Source: a virus. Taken from it: a DNA stretch of 22,403 bases. This document shows, piece by piece, positions 1,455-22,403 of the stretch (the stretch's first letter is position 1; each line of letters opens with the position of its first letter). The stretch is taken from the IMG/VR virus record IMGVR_UViG_3300008267_000433, positions 4,332 through 26,734 of that record. One strand, 5' to 3'. A program made the translations under genes and the position numbers. The notes under the pieces were generated by a model. It did no database searches. It was not told the DNA's origin and saw nothing but the letters and a program-made list of their open reading frames with translations.

Positions 1455-1649
1455 TCAGTCGTTACGATTGATTTCTTCTAGCAGTTCTGCGTACTCCATA
1501 AGCGCCATTGAGGCTGTGTGGCGGTCATAGCCGTCATTACAGTTACATGGGTGGCGCACCTGAACAGCCCTTAGAGCCTCTGCCAACTGAGCGGCACAGG
1601 CTTCTAAACGACGGCTGTAACTTACGAATGATGAAAGAGCATTGCTCAT
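1455..1649 (-). CDS. Small helical protein, 64 aa, unknown
   Basis: The product is mostly predicted-helical (residues 1-30 and 46-62) with a Cys-x-Cys pair in the middle (HPCNCNDG). Its ATG overlaps the stop of the deaminase-like gene by 4 nt, so it is the second gene of a two-gene minus-strand unit and is presumably co-expressed. It could be a small partner or an unrelated passenger; no family is recognised. Confidence 0.5.
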   Translation of the reverse strand: MSNALSSFVSYSRRLEACAAQLAEALRAVQVRHPCNCNDGYDRHTASMALMEYAELLEEINRND

Positions 1650-2107
1650 CTATCTACTCCAATAACGGTCACGCCCGCTTGGCTTAGTAAATTATACACT
1701 AAAGGCCAAGATTCGTAAGACTTGTCCACATAATGCACAAGCCTGTGGACTCCCGAGGATGCGATGAGTTTGGCGCATCCCATGCAGGGAGGGCCGTTGA
1801 CAATTAGCGTCCCACCTAGACGTAGAGACGGATCACTCCATAGAAGCGCCCCCTGTTCGGCATGCTGCGAAATGCAGTTGTCGTAGGAGGAACCGCTAGC
1901 GCTGTTTTCATGCAGTCGTGGGCAGGCTCCGTCAGTGCAATGAGCCATACCGGGAGGGCTTCCGTTGTAGCCCACTCCAGCGACCCTCTTGTTAGGGGCT
2001 AGGACTACAGAGAAATACTGACGCTTGGAGCAAGTTGAGAACATTGGCGCTAGCATGTCACATGCTTCTAGCCATTTTCTCTCGTGGCTATGTACTGAGT
2101 TGGTCAT
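1646..2107 (-). CDS. dCMP deaminase-like (cytidine/deoxycytidylate deaminase fold)
   Basis: The 153-aa protein carries the zinc signature of the cytidine-deaminase superfamily: H82-A-E84, with E84 as the proton shuttle, and PPC108-M-G-C111. Upstream, GYNGSPPGMAHC (about residues 46-57) and a second Cys (C62) match the region that holds an extra zinc in phage deoxycytidylate deaminases. The expected reaction is dCMP to dUMP, feeding dTMP synthesis during phage replication. Length fits the family. No thymidylate synthase is visible nearby. The gene appears leaderless (TAGGGT 7 nt before ATG) and is coupled to the 64-aa gene behind it. Confidence 0.85.
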   Translation of the reverse strand: MTNSVHSHERKWLEACDMLAPMFSTCSKRQYFSVVLAPNKRVAGVGYNGSPPGMAHCTDGACPRLHENSASGSSYDNCISQHAEQGALLWSDPSLRLGGTLIVNGPPCMGCAKLIASSGVHRLVHYVDKSYESWPLVYNLLSQAGVTVIGVDR

Positions 2108-2967: not shown

Positions 2968-3143
2968 TGCATGACGTAGCAGTAGAAGTTCTTTGGGATA
3001 ACAACGGAGACCCAACCCACAGCATTGGTTGGCTTACGGAAGCAAAAAACCGCTGCCTTCAACTCGTTACCGAGTATTCCAGCAGCGGTTTTGTTGAACT
3101 TCAAATTCCGGTTGAATCAGTGATCAACCTGAAACTTATTTAG
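2967..3143 (+). CDS. Small unknown protein, 58 aa
   Basis: The ATG overlaps the phosphoesterase stop (TAATG), and the frame is open for 58 codons. The product (starting MHDVAVEVLWD, ending SVINLKLI) has a balanced composition with alternating hydrophobic residues, suggesting a small beta-rich fold. Its 3' end overlaps the convergent endolysin gene by 4 nt. A strong hairpin (3046-3092) lies inside its coding sequence, so this stretch both codes and probably terminates the opposing transcript. No family is recognised. Confidence 0.5.
   Translation: MHDVAVEVLWDNNGDPTHSIGWLTEAKNRCLQLVTEYSSSGFVELQIPVESVINLKLI
3046..3092 (-). terminator. Rho-independent terminator of the endolysin transcript
   Basis: AAAACCGCTGC (3046-3056) pairs with GCAGCGGTTTT (3082-3092), an 11-bp stem. 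Inside the loop, ACTCG (3062-3066) pairs with CGAGT (3071-3075) around TTAC, giving a two-tier hairpin. Read on the minus strand it is followed by a run of six T, as needed for intrinsic termination, 48 nt past the endolysin stop codon. On the plus strand a shorter T-run follows, so weak bidirectional action is possible. Confidence 0.7.
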
Positions 3144-4198
3144 GACAGCAGAGCGTTCCACGTTTGTGGTCCAACAATACCATCAGCCTGAAGGCCCCGG
3201 GATGATTGGAAGCGACGAACAGCACTATCAGTGGCTGGTCCGAAGATGCCATCACCGACGAGTCGATATCCCTTGCCGTTAAGTGCTAACTGTGCAATCT
3301 TCACAGCGCCACCGTTTGATCCCTGACGAAGAACCTGAGTACGGGCATCGTTCAAGGCATCGAAGAATGGGTTACTAGGAGCAACGGCAGGGAGGTTGTT
3401 CAGAAACACAAACAGGTCGTGTGTCGCCTGTTCGGTTGCCGGACCCCAAATGCCATCGGGGGTGATCTTCAGGTTCTTTTGCCATTGAATAACGGCTCGT
3501 TCGGTTTGAGGACCGAAGATGCCGTCTTGAGCAACGCCTACAATCCCTTGGATCGAACGGACCTTGTCACCGGTAGAACCAACACGCCAAACGGTGTCAG
3601 GGGCTACAGGAACCGGCTGAGTGGGCGTAGGAGGCGCTACAGGGGCAACACCGGCATGACGTTCAATCGCCTGAAGTAGAGCAGAGTCGAAGATCCAGCG
3701 GTCTTCACGACGGCTCCAAGCGTCGCTACGGTCTGCTGGTTGGACATCTCCGTGATGTGCCAGTCCGGGTCGATCCTTAACACCTTCACCGATGAACTGT
3801 GAGGCTTCTGCGATGTTGATACCGTTACGTTGCCAAAATGCAGCAATCTCAGCGCCCATACGGTCAATTTCGGTCTGAGTGTAAGGGCTGTTCGGGTCAA
3901 GATCGGAAGAACGTGCTGCGATAGCGATCATCCAGCATTTGCTGTTGAAGCCCGGTGCTGCGACTCCGAAGGCCACATAATCATCAGGCATCATCGCTAC
4001 AGATGAATCCGTATCAACGATCATGTGATAACTGCCCGGATCGGATCTACGGGAAATAAAGCCCGCTGTATTCTCGGCAGCGGTGTCCCCACCAGCACCT
4101 TCGGTTGTGTGGATGACAACGCCACCACTAAGACCGTTATTGCGAGACGGGTAGAACTGGGGTGAAGCAGGGGGGTTATCAAGAAGGTAATAGCCCAT
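3140..4198 (-). CDS. Endolysin: N-acetylmuramoyl-L-alanine amidase with two peptidoglycan-binding domains
   Basis: A 352-aa lysin. Residues 20-165 form an Amidase_2-type catalytic domain: H30 in VIHTTEG, H58, H149 and D159 in HGDVQPADRSD are the likely zinc and active-site residues. It cleaves the bond between N-acetylmuramic acid and L-alanine. A Pro-rich linker (185-200) leads to two PG_binding_1 repeats (about 204-265 and 288-351), each with the DGI(F/W)GP signature. There is no signal peptide, so release would need a holin, and none is evident in the window. AGGAG lies 6 nt before the ATG. The gene follows a small Cys-rich gene by 13 nt. Confidence 0.92.
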   Translation of the reverse strand: MGYYLLDNPPASPQFYPSRNNGLSGGVVIHTTEGAGGDTAAENTAGFISRRSDPGSYHMIVDTDSSVAMMPDDYVAFGVAAPGFNSKCWMIAIAARSSDLDPNSPYTQTEIDRMGAEIAAFWQRNGINIAEASQFIGEGVKDRPGLAHHGDVQPADRSDAWSRREDRWIFDSALLQAIERHAGVAPVAPPTPTQPVPVAPDTVWRVGSTGDKVRSIQGIVGVAQDGIFGPQTERAVIQWQKNLKITPDGIWGPATEQATHDLFVFLNNLPAVAPSNPFFDALNDARTQVLRQGSNGGAVKIAQLALNGKGYRLVGDGIFGPATDSAVRRFQSSRGLQADGIVGPQTWNALLS

Positions 4199-5161: not shown

Positions 5162-5249
5162 AGACCGCTTTGTCTGCGGAAACCAATACGAAGGACCACC
5201 CGTTCAGAAACTACAAGGGTTTTTGATCGGGCTTTCGGGAAAGGAACAC
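5162..5249 (+). other. Structured 5' leader of the Rpf-like gene
   Basis: The leader can form two mutually exclusive small stems at its 5' end: AGAC (5162-5165) with GTCT (5172-5175), or CCGC (5165-5168) with GCGG (5176-5179). CTTT (5232-5235) can pair with AAAG (5240-5243), which overlaps the AAAGGA ribosome-binding site. This suggests possible control of translation. It does not match any riboswitch I can identify. Confidence 0.25.
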
Positions 5250-5807
5250 ATGACAAACGGAAAGAAATTGCTAGGACTGGGAGTACTCTCATTCCTAGCA
5301 ATCACAATCGGCTCCGTCGCACTTGCGGACGGTTCCGAGACAACGGTAATCACTGTTGCTGAAGAAGCACCAGTAGTGGAGCAGCCTCCACTAACCTCCG
5401 ATCAACACGTCATTGACGTTGCGATCGCAGAACTGGATGCCTTCTTGGCAGAAACAAACCGTATTGAGTCCGAAAAGGCTCAGCAAGCAAGGGAATCACA
5501 ACGAGTAGCCAGCGCTCCTGCTGCTGAGCCTAATTATGATACGGGTGACGGAAGTCGCTGGGATCAATTGGCTCAGTGTGAGGCTGGAGGAAACTGGGCG
5601 ACCAACACCGGTAATGGTTTTGGTGGCGGACTCCAGTTTATGCATCAACGCAGTTACTCAACGTGGCTGTCCTTTGGTGGTGGCGAATTCGCACCACACC
5701 CTTGGGAGGCAACCCGGGAACAACAGATAGTTGTTGCTGAGCGAGTGCTTGCTTCATCCGGGTGGTCGGCTTGGCCGGGTTGTAGCAGGAAATTTAATTG
5801 GTTGTAG
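5250..5807 (+). CDS. Secreted Rpf-type transglycosylase (resuscitation-promoting factor fold)
   Basis: A 185-aa protein. Residues 1-26 form a signal peptide (KK, a hydrophobic core, then SVALA before DGS). A Glu- and Ala-rich, mostly disordered or coiled linker spans 30-100. Residues 104-185 are an Rpf/transglycosylase-like domain: W104, CEAGGNW with catalytic E111, [23 protein letters not shown] and a final GWSAWPGC. C110 and C178 likely form the conserved disulfide. It cuts the beta-1,4 glycan bond of peptidoglycan. ATG 5250 is preferred over TTG 5223 because AAAGGA lies 4 nt upstream. It is separate from the endolysin and has its own promoter. The family is typical of Actinobacteria. Confidence 0.9.
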
Positions 5808-14336: not shown

Positions 14337-15605
14337 ATGGCTTTTCAGATCCCCGATGGGTCTGCTATCACCGGCACTAACCGTGTCGCTGGTGGCGTTG
14401 CCGGTTCGGCATTCGGCGCTCCCGCTGGATACGACACAACCGGTGCAGGTGCAAATATCACAGGTGGCTATGGCGCAGGTATCACTTCCGGTACCTCCCT
14501 CATGGGTCCTGCGATTCAAACTGTTTGGTCGAAGGAAATCCTCTTTCAGGCCATGCCGGTTCTCCGGTTCGAACAGTTTGCCGTAAAGAAGACCGAACTT
14601 GGCGTTATGCCGGGTCTCACGGTTAACTTCATGCGTTACAACAACCTTCCGATCCCTTCGGGTCCGCTGGTTGAAGGTATCCGTATGAAGACCTATGGCA
14701 TTACCGCTCAGCAGTACCGTATTACGGTTGCTGAACACGGTTTCGCTATTGCCGTTTCGGAACTTCTCCTCAACGCCTCGTTCGATGACGTTATGGCTTC
14801 GGCTTCACGTCTCCTCGGACGCAACATGGCGCTCTACATGGACACGCAGGCACGTCAGACGCTTCAGTCGGCAACCAGCAAGGTCTACGGCTACAAGGCC
14901 CCGACCGACCTGACCTCCGGCTACGGCATCTACAACAAGGGCGTTCAAGGCGCTTCCGGTACCATTGGTTCCGGCGGCTTCTTCCTCACCCCGCATGCGG
15001 TCAAGGATGCAGTGCTTGAACTTTCAAGCAAGAACATTCCTCGCCTTGGCGAGACCTATGTCTGCTTCATCCACCCGTCGCAGAGCCGTCAACTTCGTGA
15101 CACCCCTGAATTCATCGAAGTTTCGAAGTACGCCGCTCCCGGCAACTTCATGCTTGGTGAAATCGGTCGTCTGTACGACGTTGTCTTCATCGAAACGACT
15201 CAGGTTGGCCGTCCTCTTTCGGACCCGGCTGACTACATCAACACCGCCTACGACGATGGTACTCCTGCCGCATGGCGTGGTACCGACTCGCAGACCGATG
15301 GTCCCGATGTTAGCGCCGCTACCATTGAAGATTCACCGGGTACGGGTGCCGAACCGGGCGCAGTTGCGACCCCGGGTTGGGATCAGTACTGGCCTGAAGA
15401 CTTCACGGTTACCCCGGACACGGAGCAGTTTGAAGCCCTTATGCTTGGTGACAATGCATTCGGTCATGCAATCTCGCTCCCGGTGGAACTCCGTGACGGT
15501 GGCGTTCTTGACTTCGGTCGTGAGCACGCCCTTGCGTGGTACAGCATTTGGGGCTTCGGCCTCATCACCGATTCGGCAGTCTGCAAGATCGTCACCAACG
15601 GCTGA
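14337..15605 (+). CDS. Major capsid protein (N4-gp56-like family)
   Basis: A 422-aa protein with ATAGGAGGA 7 nt before ATG, as expected for the most highly made phage protein. The Gly/Ala-rich N-terminus (1-58) is followed by a core resembling the N4-gp56 capsid family: WSKEILFQAMPVLRFEQ (64-80), GLTVNFMRYNNLP (93-105), LVEGIRMKTYGITAQQYRI (111-129) and SELLLNASFDDV (141-152). Residues about 292-362 are an extra acidic, Pro/Gly/Thr-rich stretch that looks like an inserted surface loop or small domain. Codon choice favours C- and T-ending codons, fitting high expression. A terminator follows directly. Confidence 0.88.
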   Translation: MAFQIPDGSAITGTNRVAGGVAGSAFGAPAGYDTTGAGANITGGYGAGITSGTSLMGPAIQTVWSKEILFQAMPVLRFEQFAVKKTELGVMPGLTVNFMRYNNLPIPSGPLVEGIRMKTYGITAQQYRITVAEHGFAIAVSELLLNASFDDVMASASRLLGRNMALYMDTQARQTLQSATSKVYGYKAPTDLTSGYGIYNKGVQGASGTIGSGGFFLTPHAVKDAVLELSSKNIPRLGETYVCFIHPSQSRQLRDTPEFIEVSKYAAPGNFMLGEIGRLYDVVFIETTQVGRPLSDPADYINTAYDDGTPAAWRGTDSQTDGPDVSAATIEDSPGTGAEPGAVATPGWDQYWPEDFTVTPDTEQFEALMLGDNAFGHAISLPVELRDGGVLDFGREHALAWYSIWGFGLITDSAVCKIVTNG

Positions 15606-16049: not shown

Positions 16050-17312
16050 ATGGGTATTGCAACCGTCCACTATCTTTCAATGAACGCCCGAGACGGCGTG
16101 GTAGACATTCCTGATGAAGAAGGTACCAACACAGTCCTTGAGGACTGGAGTGGTTCCTACACGTTTGACAATCTTCAGGTACCTAACGTCTACACGGTTA
16201 ACTGGGGCGATGGCTCCAGCACCGAGGACGTGGTAGTGGGCGGTGCAATCTCCCGCATCAAGACCAGCGATTTCGATACCGATGTTCCGTTCATGTTTAA
16301 TGATCCGAACCCGTACGACATGGTCATCCTTCCTGATAACAAGACCGCTTACGTTACGCAGCCTCAGGCTGGCGAATTTAACGGCAACCCAGTTGGTCGT
16401 ATTAGCGTCGTTGATCTTCAATCTAAGCAGGTTCTAGACGAGATCGCTATCCCCAACAACTTTATTGTATGGGGTATTACTGCCACTTCTGATGGCAGTA
16501 AGGTCTATGTCGCTTCTAGTGCAACCGCAACCGACGATGATGACAAGATTTTCGTTATCGACACCGCTAAGCGTGAGGTCGTAAAGGAAATTACTGTCGG
16601 CCTTTACCCGAGTGGAGTTACCCTTAACCCCGCTGGGACCGAACTTTGGGTCACTTGCACTGCCGATAGTTCCATCTACATCATCGACACGGCTACGGAT
16701 GAAGTTGACCGCTTCTTGGAATTCCCTGATAGCGGTACCGAGCCTATGCGTGGAGTGTTCTCCAACGCTGGTGACGTGTTCTACGTCACTCTTTGGGGCC
16801 TCGGTCAGGTTGGAGCCATTCAGTCTGATGCTGAAGATCTCGCTGCCTTCGACTTTGTCAATGTAAATGAGCCGTTTGGTATCGGCAAGAATGACGATGG
16901 AAGCCGCCTTATCGTGGCATCCAACGATTCCGGTGAAGTAGTCATCATCGATGTTGACCCGTTTGAAATTCTTGACACGGTTGAGACTGATGATTTCCCG
17001 TGGGCGATTGCTGTCGATGCAAACGACGTTGCCTACGTCACTCATGGAAGTGGCGACGTATACTTCGTCAACATCAACACGGCGACCCTTGGCGGCTCTG
17101 AGTACGTTGGCGCTAATGCCAATGGTGTCGCTATTTCCCCGAACGGTGTCTACGCCTATGTGACAGTGTTTGGTTGGTCCGACTGCGATGGTCAAGACAC
17201 TAACTTTGACCTGAGCCACACCTACGCCACCCCCGGCACTTACACCATTACCGCAACTGACAAGGATGGTCAGGTTGACGTTAAGGGTACCGTTACTGTC
17301 CTTGTTGACTGA
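16050..17312 (+). CDS. Beta-propeller virion protein, apparently nested in a PKD-like domain
   Basis: A 420-aa protein with AAGGAG before ATG. Residues about 75-375 show repeated YVTN-type beta-propeller blades: KTAYVTQPQ, SKVYVASSAT, TELWVTCTAD, DVFYVTLWG, SRLIVASNDS, DVAYVTHGSG and VYAYVTVFG, most followed by a VIDTATxEV-like strand. Before them lies VYTVNWGDGSST (48-59), the first half of a PKD fold, and after them LSHTYATPGTYTITATDKDG (388-407), its second half. The two halves probably fold together with the propeller as an insertion. There is no signal peptide. Its place between capsid and fibre genes suggests a surface-exposed head or tail appendage that binds glycans or proteins. Confidence 0.7.
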   Translation: MGIATVHYLSMNARDGVVDIPDEEGTNTVLEDWSGSYTFDNLQVPNVYTVNWGDGSSTEDVVVGGAISRIKTSDFDTDVPFMFNDPNPYDMVILPDNKTAYVTQPQAGEFNGNPVGRISVVDLQSKQVLDEIAIPNNFIVWGITATSDGSKVYVASSATATDDDDKIFVIDTAKREVVKEITVGLYPSGVTLNPAGTELWVTCTADSSIYIIDTATDEVDRFLEFPDSGTEPMRGVFSNAGDVFYVTLWGLGQVGAIQSDAEDLAAFDFVNVNEPFGIGKNDDGSRLIVASNDSGEVVIIDVDPFEILDTVETDDFPWAIAVDANDVAYVTHGSGDVYFVNINTATLGGSEYVGANANGVAISPNGVYAYVTVFGWSDCDGQDTNFDLSHTYATPGTYTITATDKDGQVDVKGTVTVLVD

Positions 17313-17334: not shown

Positions 17335-18942
17335 ATGGCCCTTCGTGATGGGTTCCGTATCCCGAATGCTGATACGTTCGCTCCTGACTTTCAGACAGCA
17401 CAGCCTGATCAGGGTGATTTCCTGATCCTTGGCAACAGCCAATATGGCGTTATTACTGGTTGCGGTATCTCCCCCAGCGGCTCTTATTCAGTAGCCGTTG
17501 GGGGTGGACCCAACTTGCTAATTGTGGCTGGTCAGTTGTACACATTGGCCCCCGGACTTGGGCTATCAGTATCCCCTCCAGCGGCTAGTGCTCGTTTCGA
17601 CCTAATTGTCTACGACACAAGCCTTGCTTCGCCGTTCGCAGTAGTAGCAGGCACTCCTGCTCCTAACCCGGTATTCCCCGATGTGACGAGCACTATGACG
17701 GTGCTTGCTGCCGTATTTATTCCGGCATCGGGCGGTAGCGGTGCGATACGCATTATTGATAAGCGTAACTTCCTTCAGACGGAAGTCATTGGCGTTAACT
17801 CACCAATGATCCTAAAGAACCTTGATAGCAGCGGTGCTTATATCAAGGTGAGTATCGATGGAAGCGGCAAGATCTCTTGGGGTGACGGATCTAGCACTGT
17901 CGATACTTCGGTAGAGCGCATTAGTGCAGGTAAGTTGCGTACACCCGGAGAGTTCTCAGCCGAGGTACTCACTGCGTCGTCGTCTGCAACGGTGGGTGGT
18001 AATGACGTAATTACTACTGAGACCATCGACTGGGGTAACTCTCGCCCTAGCGCTAGTACTAAAGATATTGGTGACGTGTACGTCAACAATACTACTGGTG
18101 ATATCAGCGTAGTTAAGTTAGACCCTCTCGGTGCTAAGGAGTGGACTTCCCTCCAGCCCAACCTTCCATCAGGTTCGGTTATTCAATCTCTTGTAGCCCC
18201 TGACCGCATGCCGGGATGGCTTCCACTCATTGGCGGTACCATCGCTACATCGGAAGCGGGTAATCTTCCTACCCTTTTCCCCGAATGGGTATCAGGTAGC
18301 AATATCACGTTGCCTGATATGCGTGGTCGTATCCCTGTTGGCGGTGGAGACATTTCTAATGGCTCTGTCGGTTCCACACATGGTAGTACCCCGCTGGATG
18401 GAACTGGTAAGACCTCGGTAACTCTTACCGAAGCGAACCTTCCTCCCCATAGGCACCGCAACAGTAATACCACTGCGGCAGCAGGTTCTCATTCCCATAC
18501 TGGTACTACCGCTGGCGGTGGGTCACATTCCCACACTACAGACGGCCATGTGGGCGGTACTGGAGACGGCGGCGCTCACGGTCATTCGGCTACCGATAGC
18601 GGTCACTGGCATTACTGGGAAGGCGGCTTCCCTATGGTTGCTACGTTCCCTGACGCTCCGCACGATAGTTGTATGGATATCCCGTTCGCTGATGCGTCCC
18701 ATACCTATCGGACCCGACCTGAGCCTCACTCAATGTTTGGAACTGCAAACATCACCGTAAACGGTGCTGCTAACCATTTCCATTCAATCGGTACCTCATC
18801 AACTCATACCCATTCAATTGATACTATGAGTACAGCGAGTGCCCATACCCACGCCATCCCCGATCATCTGACTATCGGTAGTGGTACCTCATTTACCGTT
18901 CAGCCCCCGACGCTGAATCTCTACTTCTATATTAAGATTTAG
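17335..18942 (+). CDS. Tail fibre/collar protein with His-x-His-rich tip
   Basis: A 535-aa protein with AGGAG 9 nt before ATG. Residues 1-150 resemble a virion-anchoring fibre N-terminus; 160-280 are a repetitive beta stalk (SGKISWGDGSST, SVERISAGKLRT). From about 290 it carries a collar-type domain: MPGWLPLIGG, NITLPDMRGRIPVGGG (323-338), TLTEANLPPHRH (363-374). Eight His-x-His pairs follow (372/374, 386/388, 398/400, 415/417, 424/426, 481/483, 491/493, 504/506), as in trimeric phage tips where such pairs hold iron ions along the axis. It ends PPTLNLYFYIKI. It is probably a receptor-binding fibre. Confidence 0.8.
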   Translation: MALRDGFRIPNADTFAPDFQTAQPDQGDFLILGNSQYGVITGCGISPSGSYSVAVGGGPNLLIVAGQLYTLAPGLGLSVSPPAASARFDLIVYDTSLASPFAVVAGTPAPNPVFPDVTSTMTVLAAVFIPASGGSGAIRIIDKRNFLQTEVIGVNSPMILKNLDSSGAYIKVSIDGSGKISWGDGSSTVDTSVERISAGKLRTPGEFSAEVLTASSSATVGGNDVITTETIDWGNSRPSASTKDIGDVYVNNTTGDISVVKLDPLGAKEWTSLQPNLPSGSVIQSLVAPDRMPGWLPLIGGTIATSEAGNLPTLFPEWVSGSNITLPDMRGRIPVGGGDISNGSVGSTHGSTPLDGTGKTSVTLTEANLPPHRHRNSNTTAAAGSHSHTGTTAGGGSHSHTTDGHVGGTGDGGAHGHSATDSGHWHYWEGGFPMVATFPDAPHDSCMDIPFADASHTYRTRPEPHSMFGTANITVNGAANHFHSIGTSSTHTHSIDTMSTASAHTHAIPDHLTIGSGTSFTVQPPTLNLYFYIKI

Positions 18943-18956
18943 GGGGTAGAACGACT

Positions 18957-19619
18957 ATGGCGACAGAACCTGTCGTTTACCGAGTCGGCTCTTTCGTACC
19001 AAACACCGTTACTGCATCCGCTGAGTTATACGCCGAACAACTTGAAGAAATGCCTTACCCGTTCGGTATGAGCGAATATGCAGACGGATCAAATTGGCCC
19101 CCAGCCGGATTCTCAGGAGTAGCGGTGACTACATCAACATCTACTAATACCGCCAGCCTCCTCCCCGAGGCATATAACCTTGAGTGGGTTCAGGGTGACA
19201 CGGCTGAATTCCAGTTCTTGTTTACCGATGTGAACTGGACACACGTTGACCCCGAAGAGGTCGATCAACCTGAATGGGTTGAGACGACGTGGTCTGCTCA
19301 GGTCCGTAACCCTTATATCTATTCCACCTATGCCTCTGACTATTGGGTTCCGGCATATGGGTATCAATACAACTGGTGGCGTGGTAACAGCATTGTTGCT
19401 GAGTTTGATACTACCTCTGAACTTATTCAGGGCTTTGATACTAACGATCTAGAGCGTTGGGCTACCCGAGTAACCCTCACTCTTCCGGCCACCGATAGCG
19501 CTCTTATCCTTCCCGGCAACTGGTACCGCTGGGATCTTCAGACTCGTACAATTGACGATGTCGTAAAGACCCATCTACGGGGCAAGGCAAGGGTAATTAC
19601 TGAGTGGACCGTGAGGTAA
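18957..19619 (+). CDS. Probable baseplate or fibre-adaptor protein, 220 aa
   Basis: The ATG follows AGGGGGT. After a polar N-terminus (1-70), the core YNLEWVQGDTAEFQFLF (73-89) and WSAQVRNPYIY (112-122) opens the pattern of BppU-like adaptor domains (a strand, then Q-G-D-T/S, then W-x-A-Q-V/I-R). It ends with VTLTLPATDSALILPGNWYR (172-191) and a final GKARVITEWTVR. It is unusually rich in Trp and Tyr, with a Tyr-rich insertion (120-142). Such domains join a fibre to the baseplate. Its place right before the collagen-like fibre supports a role as that fibre's anchor. Confidence 0.55.
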   Translation: MATEPVVYRVGSFVPNTVTASAELYAEQLEEMPYPFGMSEYADGSNWPPAGFSGVAVTTSTSTNTASLLPEAYNLEWVQGDTAEFQFLFTDVNWTHVDPEEVDQPEWVETTWSAQVRNPYIYSTYASDYWVPAYGYQYNWWRGNSIVAEFDTTSELIQGFDTNDLERWATRVTLTLPATDSALILPGNWYRWDLQTRTIDDVVKTHLRGKARVITEWTVR

Positions 19620-19625
19620 TAACTC

Positions 19626-22403
19626 ATGGAAATCATTCCTGTTACTAATAACAGTCCGGCCACTATCAACCCTCAGCCACCTGCTGAGATCATCATTACT
19701 CCCGGCGCTCAGACCGGGACTGTTGGCGTTGTAACTACGCCTCTTTCAGGACCCCGAGGACCTCAAGGTGCTCAGGGTAATCAGGGTGCTCAAGGCGAGG
19801 AAGGTCCCCAAGGTAATCAAGGTACCCAAGGATCTCGTGGATCACAGGGCTATGACGGCGCTAAAGGAAACCAAGGAAACCAAGGTAATCAGGGCGCTCA
19901 GGGATCTATTGGTGCTCAGGGGCCTCAAGGAACTACCGGATACCAAGGTAACCAAGGCGCTGTAGGCCCTCAGGGCGCTACAGGAGCACAGGGAACTGCC
20001 GGTTCGCAAGGTACGCAGGGACAACGTGGTTATCAGGGGTACCAAGGTAATCAAGGGTCTAACGGATACCAAGGTCCTCAGGGTGTAGGTGGCGCACAAG
20101 GCGTTCAAGGTTCTCAGGGACCTCAAGGAGACACAGGCTCACAGGGAGTACAAGGTCACCAAGGCGAAGAGGGCGTACAAGGTACGCAAGGTACGCAAGG
20201 TACGCAAGGCCATCAGGGGTATCAGGGTTCACAAGGTGAGACCGGTACACAGGGTTTTCAAGGACACGAGGGCACCCAAGGTTTTCAAGGCCCTCAGGGC
20301 GTTCAGGGTCACCAAGGTACACAGGGTGTGCAGGGTGAGACCGGTGACCAAGGAGTACAAGGTTTTCAGGGTCACCAAGGCTTTCAAGGCGTTCAGGGTA
20401 CCCAAGGAAATCAAGGTGACGTAGGAGCGCAGGGCGTTCAAGGTCATCAGGGAACTCAAGGTCCACAGGGCGTTCAGGGTCACCAAGGTTTCCAAGGTCA
20501 GGTCGGTTCTGAAGGTCCACAGGGCGTTCAGGGACATCAGGGCGTACAAGGCAATCAGGGGTACCAAGGCGTACAGGGCGAGGTTGGTGCTCAGGGTTTC
20601 CAAGGAAATCAGGGCAACCAAGGCTTCCAAGGTGGTCAGGGCGTTCAAGGTCACCAAGGGTTCCAAGGAACTCAAGGTGTACAAGGGCATCAAGGTCACC
20701 AAGGAGAGATTGGTGCTCAGGGATCTCAGGGTGTCCAAGGACATCAGGGCTTTCAGGGCGTTACCGGTTCCCAAGGAAACGAAGGACCTCAGGGTCTTTC
20801 CGGCCCGCAAGGCCATCAAGGTCATCAGGGATTCCAAGGTAATCAGGGATTTCAGGGCAACCAAGGAACCACTGGTTCTCAGGGAACTCAAGGCTTCCAA
20901 GGTAATCAGGGTTTCCAAGGTAATCAAGGCGATACCGGAGCACAGGGAAATCAGGGTAACCAAGGCTCACAGGGAAACCAAGGCGTTCAGGGATCTCAGG
21001 GAAATCAGGGTAACCAAGGCTCACAGGGTCCTCAGGGCTATCAAGGTTCTGATGGAACGTCTGTAACTATCCTCGGTTCGTATAACGACTATGCGACCTT
21101 CATTGCGGCGCATCCAACCGGTTCTCTCGGGGACGGTTACCTTGTCGATGGCGATCTCTATGTTTGGGACGGTAGCGGCTGGAATAATGTCGGCACCATC
21201 GAAGGTCCCCAAGGGTCTCAAGGAACGCAGGGCTTCCAAGGTGATACTGGCCCTCAGGGAAACCAAGGAGACACCGGTACACAAGGCTCTCAGGGCTTCC
21301 AAGGCGACACGGGTCCTCAGGGCGATACTGGATCGCAAGGTTTTCAGGGAGACCAAGGACCTCAGGGTTTGGACGGCCCTCAGGGCTATCAGGGTGATAT
21401 CGGACCACAAGGCGATCAAGGCCCACAGGGTTTCCAAGGCGATCAGGGACCTCAGGGTTTCCAAGGTCATCAAGGAGAACAGGGATCTCAAGGCGTACAA
21501 GGTTCTGACGGTGTTCAAGGTTTCCAAGGCGAAACCGGCGCTCAAGGCGTTCAGGGTCATCAAGGCGACGACGGTGCTCAAGGATTCCAAGGTGAGGTTG
21601 GCGAACAAGGGACTCAAGGATTCCAAGGTACGCAAGGTAATCAAGGTTCCGTAGGTTCCCAAGGAACTCAGGGATATCAGGGTTTCCAAGGAACAGTTGG
21701 TGCCAAGGGTGATACCGGGGACGAGGGTCCTCAGGGTGTCACTGGTTCTGTTGGCGCACAAGGCTCCGCTGGCATCGATGGCCCGCAAGGCTTCCAAGGA
21801 GCCGAAGGTCCTCAAGGTGATACAGGTTCTACTGGATCGCAAGGTACTCAGGGGTATCAAGGTGATACCGGCAATACCGGATCTCAAGGTACGCAGGGTA
21901 ATCAAGGATTCCAAGGCACTCAGGGAGTTCAAGGATCGACCGGGTCCCAAGGTAATCAAGGCGTTGCTGGTCCTCAAGGAAACGAAGGACCTCAGGGTCT
22001 TACAGGGTCACAGGGTCCACAAGGCAATGAGGGTCCTCAGGGAACTACAGGCTCCCAAGGCGCTCAGGGACACCAAGGTGACGACGGTGTTCAAGGAGTT
22101 CAAGGTCATCAGGGGTTCCAAGGAACACAAGGTGTCGATGGACCACAAGGCTTCCAAGGCAACCAAGGTCTAACCGGATCTCAAGGAACTCAAGGAGACA
22201 CCGGTAGTCAAGGCTCTACTGGGTCACAAGGCAACCAAGGTACGCAGGGACCACAGGGCTTAACGGGTTCTCAGGGTTCGCAAGGCGATGTCGGTTCTCA
22301 AGGAAACCAAGGTAATGAAGGAATACCCGGCGCTACGGGTTTCCAAGGACCTCAAGGAAACGACGGAAGCCAAGGATTCCAAGGTGATACCGGAGCACAG
22401 GGC
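19626..22403 (+). CDS. Giant collagen-like fibre protein (Gly-X-Gln repeats), 3' end beyond window
   Basis: The ATG follows GAGGT near the preceding stop, and the frame stays open for all 926 codons to the window edge. Residues 1-41 are a non-repeat head (possible virion anchor). Residues 42-476 are 145 unbroken Gly-X-Y triplets, 477-526 are a small globular insert, and triplets resume from 527 to the edge. Y is Gln in about four of five triplets by hand count; X is often Asn, Thr, Val, His, Phe, Tyr, Ser or Ala, and seldom Pro. It probably forms a long trimeric stalk with the receptor-binding end still to come. The final length is unknown. Confidence 0.85.
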   Translation, partial: MEIIPVTNNSPATINPQPPAEIIITPGAQTGTVGVVTTPLSGPRGPQGAQGNQGAQGEEGPQGNQGTQGSRGSQGYDGAKGNQGNQGNQGAQGSIGAQGPQGTTGYQGNQGAVGPQGATGAQGTAGSQGTQGQRGYQGYQGNQGSNGYQGPQGVGGAQGVQGSQGPQGDTGSQGVQGHQGEEGVQGTQGTQGTQGHQGYQGSQGETGTQGFQGHEGTQGFQGPQGVQGHQGTQGVQGETGDQGVQGFQGHQGFQGVQGTQGNQGDVGAQGVQGHQGTQGPQGVQGHQGFQGQVGSEGPQGVQGHQGVQGNQGYQGVQGEVGAQGFQGNQGNQGFQGGQGVQGHQGFQGTQGVQGHQGHQGEIGAQGSQGVQGHQGFQGVTGSQGNEGPQGLSGPQGHQGHQGFQGNQGFQGNQGTTGSQGTQGFQGNQGFQGNQGDTGAQGNQGNQGSQGNQGVQGSQGNQGNQGSQGPQGYQGSDGTSVTILGSYNDYATFIAAHPTGSLGDGYLVDGDLYVWDGSGWNNVGTIEGPQGSQGTQGFQGDTGPQGNQGDTGTQGSQGFQGDTGPQGDTGSQGFQGDQGPQGLDGPQGYQGDIGPQGDQGPQGFQGDQGPQGFQGHQGEQGSQGVQGSDGVQGFQGETGAQGVQGHQGDDGAQGFQGEVGEQGTQGFQGTQGNQGSVGSQGTQGYQGFQGTVGAKGDTGDEGPQGVTGSVGAQGSAGIDGPQGFQGAEGPQGDTGSTGSQGTQGYQGDTGNTGSQGTQGNQGFQGTQGVQGSTGSQGNQGVAGPQGNEGPQGLTGSQGPQGNEGPQGTTGSQGAQGHQGDDGVQGVQGHQGFQGTQGVDGPQGFQGNQGLTGSQGTQGDTGSQGSTGSQGNQGTQGPQGLTGSQGSQGDVGSQGNQGNEGIPGATGFQGPQGNDGSQGFQGDTGAQG
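19749..21053 (+). repeat. First Gly-X-Y repeat block, 145 triplets
   Basis: A 9-nt periodic pattern (GGN NNN CAR) runs without a phase break. Gln alternates between CAA and CAG, and Gly between GGT, GGC, GGA and GGG, so the DNA is much less repetitive than the protein. Long false open frames on the other strand come from this pattern. Confidence 0.9.
21054..21203 (+). other. Globular insert within the collagen-like fibre
   Basis: Fifty codons break the triplet repeat: TSVTILGSYNDYATF, then a turn with HPTGSLGDGYLVDGDLYVW and DGSGWNNVG. The hydrophobic and aromatic pattern suggests a small beta domain of the kind that interrupts collagen-like phage fibres, perhaps to set the register of the three chains or to bind a ligand. 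Confidence 0.65.
21204..22403 (+). repeat. Second Gly-X-Y repeat block, continues past the window
   Basis: The triplets resume directly after the globular insert (GPQ first) and continue for 400 codons to the last base. This block has more non-Gln Y positions (GDT, GDD, GST, GSV and similar) than the first, so its composition shifts along the fibre. Confidence 0.85.

What the first reader, a model, noticed from the sequence alone, without database searches (positions are those of the whole stretch)
19749..22403. Proline-poor, glutamine-dominated Gly-X-Gln fibre of more than 850 residues of repeat
Seen: about 80% of triplets in the first block have Gln at Y, Pro is scarce, and X is often Phe, Tyr, His, Asn or Val. 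Known: collagen triple helices are normally stabilised by Pro, hydroxyproline or charged pairs. Inference: stability must come from something else, such as Gln side-chain ladders, or the chain may form a different glycine-rich helix bundle (polyglycine II-like) as in some phage adhesins.
Basis: partly seen in the sequence, partly recalled or inferred. Interest (0 to 1): 0.65.

Follow-up and report, generated by a model that had tools for sequence, protein, structure and literature searches.

The report
Glutamine-rich phage collagen fibre
A phage, probably of an actinobacterium, carries a very long collagen-like fibre built on glutamine instead of proline; the fibre is an extreme case of a common phage part, and it contains a small module shaped like the piece that ties animal collagens XV and XVIII into trimers.

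Summary
The ORF at 19626-22403 is cut by the contig end. It has 279 Gly-X-Y triplets in two blocks; 207 of 279 have Gln at Y, and Pro fills 32 of 558 X/Y positions. It scores as collagen (PF01391, 440 bits) and as PHROG tail fibre. Relatives give the full plan: a 41-residue anchor, GXQ shaft, 47-residue interruption, GXQ shaft, and exchangeable tips such as a Tail Collar domain.

Gln content is extreme but graded: 2 of 115 composition-blind viral GXY loci reach it. A polyglycine-II bundle is unlikely: Gly fills 2 of 558 X/Y positions.

The interruption is confidently modelled and resembles the collagen XVIII/XV trimerization domain (Z 5.0 over 54 of 56 residues). It sits between collagen blocks in 78 of 80 loci. 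No sequence link was found. That fold is already reported in a Klebsiella phage lyase (PMC8822698).

Most likely: a homotrimeric collagen adhesin of an actinobacterial myophage. Attachment to tail, neck or capsid is unresolved.

The parts
19626..22403 (+). Fibre gene, 926 codons seen, ATG start, no stop before the contig end
   Evidence: contig G000 ends at the window end; Pfam Collagen 440.2 bits against a cut-off of 27.2; PHROG tail fibre
19626..19748 (+). 41-residue N-terminal anchor, the conserved start shared by six lineage fibres
   Evidence: 40-81% identity to the window in 5 relatives
19749..21062 (+). Collagen-like block 1, 146 triplets, 116 with Gln at Y
   Evidence: same length in L006
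21063..21203 (+). 47-residue interruption module, predicted beta-alpha-beta-beta-beta, resembling the collagen XVIII/XV trimerization domain
   Evidence: model of 21039-21239, mean pLDDT 83.4, core blocks 93-95; Foldseek and VIA matches; GXY on both sides in 78 of 80 loci
21204..22400 (+). Collagen-like block 2, 133 triplets seen, 91 with Gln at Y, continues beyond the contig
18957..19619 (+). 220-residue protein that precedes the fibre; used as bait for the lineage
   Evidence: 13 loci in viral contigs; weak PHROG 1084, unknown function; no match among isolated phages
17335..18942 (+). 535-residue putative tail protein, neighbour in the same block
   Evidence: PHROG 8763 tail protein, E 1.5e-7
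16050..17312 (+). 420-residue beta-propeller-like protein, neighbour in the same block
   Evidence: YVTN repeat TIGR02276 above its cut-off
14337..15605 (+). Major capsid protein, places the phage near Streptomyces phages pSt2308 and BRock
   Evidence: 57-58% identity

Best explanation
The gene encodes a long homotrimeric collagen-like fibre of a contractile-tailed phage, probably of an actinobacterium, used as an adhesin shaft. A short N-terminal anchor fixes it to the virion. Two Gly-X-Gln triple-helical rods (at least 127 and 116 nm at 0.29 nm per residue, a recalled value) are joined by a small globular module that most likely knots the three chains, as the trimerization domain of collagens XV and XVIII does. 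The missing C-terminus most likely carries a receptor-binding tip or a docking end, as in full-length relatives. Gln at Y stands in for Pro/Hyp as a well tolerated, hydrogen-bonding Y residue. Shown: sequence, architecture in relatives, module fold by prediction. Inferred: trimer, triple helix, adhesin role, Gln as stabiliser.
For: Gly in register over 279 triplets with one interruption; Pfam and PHROG. Full-length relatives L006, L007, L011 and L015 share the anchor and a GXQ shaft; L006 ends in a Tail Collar domain, and L007 and L011 have separate collar-domain genes downstream. The interruption lies between GXY blocks in 78 of 80 loci, whatever their Y chemistry (median Gln at Y 0.21, 11 of 78 at 0.68 or more), so the Gln shaft uses the same joint as other collagens. 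Its model matches multiplexin trimerization domains. Against L006 block 1, X has 90 of 146 residue changes and Y 27 of 146; Gln is in both at 104 Y sites, 36 of them with a different codon. Aromatics and His sit at X, not Y: 57 to 0 in the window, 1255 to 102 in 114 GXQ loci. MCP of the window and sheath and tube of relatives match Streptomyces phages annotated with sheath and tube genes.
Against: No structure or CD exists; trimerization is not tested. Pro is 5.7% of X/Y, and the recalled host-guest index is in the lower third of viral loci. X-versus-Y placement follows host-guest preferences only weakly in the window alone (rho 0.41, p 0.17) and better in the pooled lineage (0.60, p 0.018). 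The fibre block lies between the MCP region and the BRock gp143/gp142 homologues, not at the place of the BRock tail fibre, so attachment to the tail is not shown. The window's own tip is not seen.
Confidence: 0.78

Rival explanations
1. The same collagen fibre, but anchored on the capsid or neck instead of the tail, as a head fibre or whisker.
For: The block sits directly behind the MCP and its next gene, and before homologues of BRock gp143/gp142, away from the position of the BRock tail fibre. Short collagen-like stretches in phage capsid proteins are in print (PMC8968730, passages); SPP1 gp12 is recalled.
Against: Tail Collar tips in or beside the fibre in relatives and PHROG tail labels; gene order alone does not place a protein.
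Confidence: 0.35
2. A polyglycine-II-like bundle, as in some phage adhesins.
Against: Gly is confined to every third residue (2 of 558 X/Y positions are Gly) and X is often bulky, so only one face of each strand is free of side chains; bundle cores as recalled from S16 gp38 need more Gly. The same joint module sits in proline-rich collagens.
Confidence: 0.04
3. A largely unfolded polar spacer; the GXQ pattern is a relic of repeat expansion, kept by homogenisation and not for stability.
For: Repeats with few tripeptide types (37 types in 146); Gln-rich spacers are often disordered (recalled).
Against: 94 different 9-base units in 146 triplets, so no recent DNA homogenisation; Y is far more conserved than X against L006 while codons change.
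Confidence: 0.1
4. The interruption is only a flexible hinge, and its likeness to the collagen XVIII domain is a small-fold coincidence.
For: Z 5.0 is modest and Foldseek E is 0.14; the tool warns that Z below 8 may mean a common arrangement. No sequence signal: hhalign probability 0.1%, no better than shuffled columns (128 of 200 reach it); PDB profile search negative.
Against: Multiplexin domains fill ranks 2-8 with 52-60 aligned residues; the next row, also a phage tailspike, has Z 3.8. An experimental phage case of this fold with trimeric association exists (PMC8822698, passages).
Confidence: 0.3

Closest known systems
Phage and bacterial collagen-like proteins (PF01391), e.g. EPclA of E. 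coli O157 prophages
   Same: Long Gly-X-Y shaft in a phage structural gene; no Hyp needed; Gln and Thr preferred at Y (PMC3368898, passages)
   Different: Gln at Y 74% here against 13.0% (viruses), 14.5% (EPclPs) and 18.4% (Gram-positive) in their Table 4; Pro at X 11% against 22-48%; Phe, His and Tyr frequent here but absent in EPclPs
Collagen XV/XVIII trimerization domain
   Same: About 50-residue module next to a collagen block; predicted fold alike
   Different: No sequence similarity detected; lies between two collagen blocks; trimer untested
N-terminal domain of Klebsiella phage K1 lyase, and Geobacillus virus E2 ORF18 (7chu)
   Same: Phage proteins with this small fold; K1 lyase forms a trimer there (PMC8822698); 7chu is the best fold match, Z 6.2
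   Different: K1 lyase has a beta-helix, not a collagen shaft; the domain is N-terminal
PDB 8zxl/9ius 'spindlefibril | axialfibril' chain
   Same: Solved collagen-like chain with Gln at Y in GSQ and GLQ triplets
   Different: Regular unit with GAP triplets, so Pro at Y; source organism not shown by the tool

Membership tests
Collagen-like proteins (PF01391) | Gly at every third residue over a long stretch | tested here: met
   146 and 133 unbroken triplets
Collagen-like proteins (PF01391) | Score above the curated cut-off | tested here: met
   440.2 bits against 27.2
Collagen-like proteins (PF01391) | Triple helix of three chains | not testable with these tools
   needs CD, protease resistance or structure
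Vertebrate fibrillar collagen | Pro/Hyp-rich X and Y | tested here: not met
   32 of 558 X/Y are Pro; it is not filed here
Polyglycine-II adhesins | Gly at most positions so that strands pack in bundles (recalled) | tested here: not met
   2 of 558 X/Y positions are Gly
Phage tail fibre | Receptor-binding tip | tested here: inconclusive
   C-terminus cut off; Tail Collar in L006, none in some relatives
Phage tail fibre | Attached to the tail | not testable with these tools
   gene position ambiguous
Multiplexin (collagen XV/XVIII) trimerization domain | Fold | tested here: met
   by a predicted model only: Z 5.0, rmsd 3.3 over 54 of 56 residues of 3hsh; TM 0.55/0.63
Multiplexin (collagen XV/XVIII) trimerization domain | Sequence homology | tested here: inconclusive
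   no hit by profile or hhalign; small domains can lose it
Multiplexin (collagen XV/XVIII) trimerization domain | Trimer | not testable with these tools
   no multimer prediction available

The most novel reading that the evidence does not exclude
Gln-type shafts are a distinct, proline- and modification-independent class of collagen: a near-continuous lattice of Y-position Gln amides, bonding to backbone, water and aromatic X side chains of the next chain (NH-pi), supplies the stability, and internal multiplexin-like modules set register and nucleate folding of rods longer than 100 nm.
Probability: 0.2. Interest if true: 0.62.

Novelty: new member of a known kind. Interest (0 to 1): 0.4.

Why it matters
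Pro and Hyp are taken as the base of collagen stability. Gln-Y, proline-poor shafts are widespread in phages by this scan and, in the papers searched here, not characterised, so a simple CD test would decide whether Gln alone suffices. The shared module offers a possible tool for locking trimers in long bacterial collagens, and raises the question whether phage and animal collagens arrived at the same knot independently.

Tried and rejected
Gln-Phe NH-pi as a general code: rejected as general. In the window 27 of 28 Phe at X follow Gln; pooled axial Gln to Phe/Tyr is 35 against 28.9 shuffled (44 of 5000 reach it), but the lateral pairing is stronger (38 against 29.0, 0 of 5000), and in 114 GXQ loci the axial Phe ratio is 0.96.

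Thr-type shafts need a glycosyltransferase and Gln-type shafts do not: suggested by the lineage (GXT relatives L012 and L013 have PF00534 beside the fibre, 2 of 12 records; L016 has a cut gene whose start looks alike, by eye), but PF00534 is in 10 of 50 GXQ records and 5 of 50 GXT records (50 taken of 120 and of 119). Dropped.

A prolyl-hydroxylase-like 2OG oxygenase next to the fibre: only in the L006 record, 1 of 13. Dropped.

BRock tail fibre as a syntenic orthologue: the position differs. The GXT-relative tip model (pLDDT 66, 3 sequences) gave only common beta-sandwich matches, Z up to 7.7; no claim is made.

Gly conservation against L006 is not used as evidence, since both arrays were chosen for Gly in phase; block 2 was compared without gaps and may be out of register.

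Papers: searches were the ten searches. 'Gly-X-Gln' had 0 occurrences in the 20 rows listed. One search found nothing and nothing useful. No study of a Gln-dominated proline-poor phage collagen was seen in these listings; subscription papers are mostly not held. Read: passages of PMC8968730, PMC3368898, PMC7824840, PMC11869133, PMC10202952, PMC7029224 and PMC8822698; abstract, introduction and part 1 of the results of PMC9599227. Rasmussen 2003 was not seen, only cited by others.

Full report
What is there. The window is G000:C1:4332-26734, the right end of a 26,734-base linear virus record. The ORF 19626-22403 is open at the contig end. After 41 residues it has 146 Gly-X-Y triplets, a 47-residue interruption and 133 more triplets. 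Gln is at Y in 207 of 279, Pro in 31 X and 1 Y, Phe/Tyr/His in 57 X and 0 Y. It has 5 Lys/Arg and 50 Asp/Glu in 558 X/Y positions.

Full-length relatives. The preceding 220-residue protein found 13 loci. Those with a complete fibre: L006 1208 residues, L007 1450, L008 and L011 1005, L015 364 with GXQ shafts; L012 625, L013 569 and L016 863 with GXT shafts and 61-65% GC. L006 ends in a Tail Collar domain; L011 ends in a short tail with collar genes downstream; L007 has a long non-collagen end; L015 a 171-residue tip without a family. One conserved start, variable shaft and exchanged tip is the usual design of phage adhesins (established knowledge).

How unusual. In a composition-blind sample of viral GXY runs (116 of 120 stretches analysed, one glycine-rich locus dropped, 115 kept) the median Gln at Y is 0.13. 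Two of 115 reach the window's 0.742; none has the window's Gln, Pro and aromatic levels together. After removing near-duplicates (120 to 114), 48 viral loci have 100 or more triplets and 9 of 114 resemble the window (at least 100 triplets, Gln at Y 0.684 or more, Pro at X 0.135 or less, aromatics plus His at X 0.15 or more); in genomes 1 of 83 (119 loci, 114 with a run, 83 after deduplication). It is the tail of a distribution, not an isolated oddity.

Stability. Gln at Y was already noted as preferred in viral and bacterial collagens (PMC3368898, passages). With host-guest melting values that I recalled, the additive index of the shaft is 32.3, and 29.0 if X and Y are swapped; 115 viral loci have median 33.6 and quartiles 31.6-35.5. 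So the order Gly-X-Gln is better than the reverse and the shaft is of ordinary, somewhat low, predicted stability. PMC9599227 (introduction and results part 1) reports a crystal structure with axial Gln-Phe NH-pi contacts, and quotes +2.13 C per axial pair and -0.75 C per lateral pair. The window has both kinds in excess and the axial Phe excess is not general, so the pairing is a possible aid, not a shown mechanism.

The interruption. Related modules: 347 of 400 candidate stretches in viral contigs (capped) and 188 isolated-phage records; in the 60 of these that were listed the match falls on this module and its flanks. Of the best 80 loci, 78 have at least 4 triplets on both sides. AlphaFold2 with 41 sequences gives mean pLDDT 83.4 and core blocks 93-95. 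Foldseek: rank 1 Geobacillus virus E2 ORF18 (E 0.0026), ranks 2-7 the collagen XVIII trimerization domain (TM 0.55 and 0.63 to 3hsh, E 0.14). VIA: 7chu Z 6.2, 3hsh Z 5.0 (rmsd 3.3, 54 aligned of 56), collagen XV 3n3f Z 4.6; the next row is a phage tailspike, Z 3.8. No sequence kinship. PMC8822698 (passages) reports the same likeness, with a trimer, for the first domain of a Klebsiella phage lyase. I therefore read the module as a chain-knotting joint, with the fold likeness shown only by prediction.

Phage and place. MCP, portal, terminase and scaffold match Streptomyces phages pSt2308 and BRock; relatives encode sheath and tube. A Transglycosylas domain (PF06737; typical of actinobacterial Rpf proteins, recalled) is at 5223-5807. 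Host: probably an actinobacterium, inferred. The fibre block lies between the MCP region and the gp143/gp142 homologues, so head, neck or tail attachment stays open.

Verdict. A new, compositionally extreme member of phage collagen-like fibres; the part worth testing is Gln as the stabiliser together with the internal trimerization-like module.

Noticed in passing
window 16050-17312: A YVTN-type beta-propeller protein in the structural block of a phage; the other labels are metabolic propeller families, far below their cut-offs.
   Followed up: partly
window 5223-5807 and 3140-4198 (-): Two cell-wall enzymes: a Transglycosylas (PF06737) protein and an Amidase_2 protein with peptidoglycan-binding repeats.
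   Followed up: no
L006:15077-15838: 2OG-Fe(II) oxygenase two genes behind the fibre in one relative only.
   Followed up: partly
L013:13667-15384: Methyltransferase-like gene and GT4 glycosyltransferase behind the GXT fibre of a GC-rich relative.
   Followed up: partly
L384, L405, L411, L461: Other viral GXY runs with 43-65% aromatics or His at X and almost no Pro; a second odd composition class.
   Followed up: no
L187, L147, L181 (Paenibacillus genomes): Long GXQ collagens with 91-98% Gln at Y but Pro 31-41% and Asp 13-35% at X.
   Followed up: no
window 1646-2107 (-): Deoxycytidylate deaminase-like protein (PF00383).
   Followed up: no
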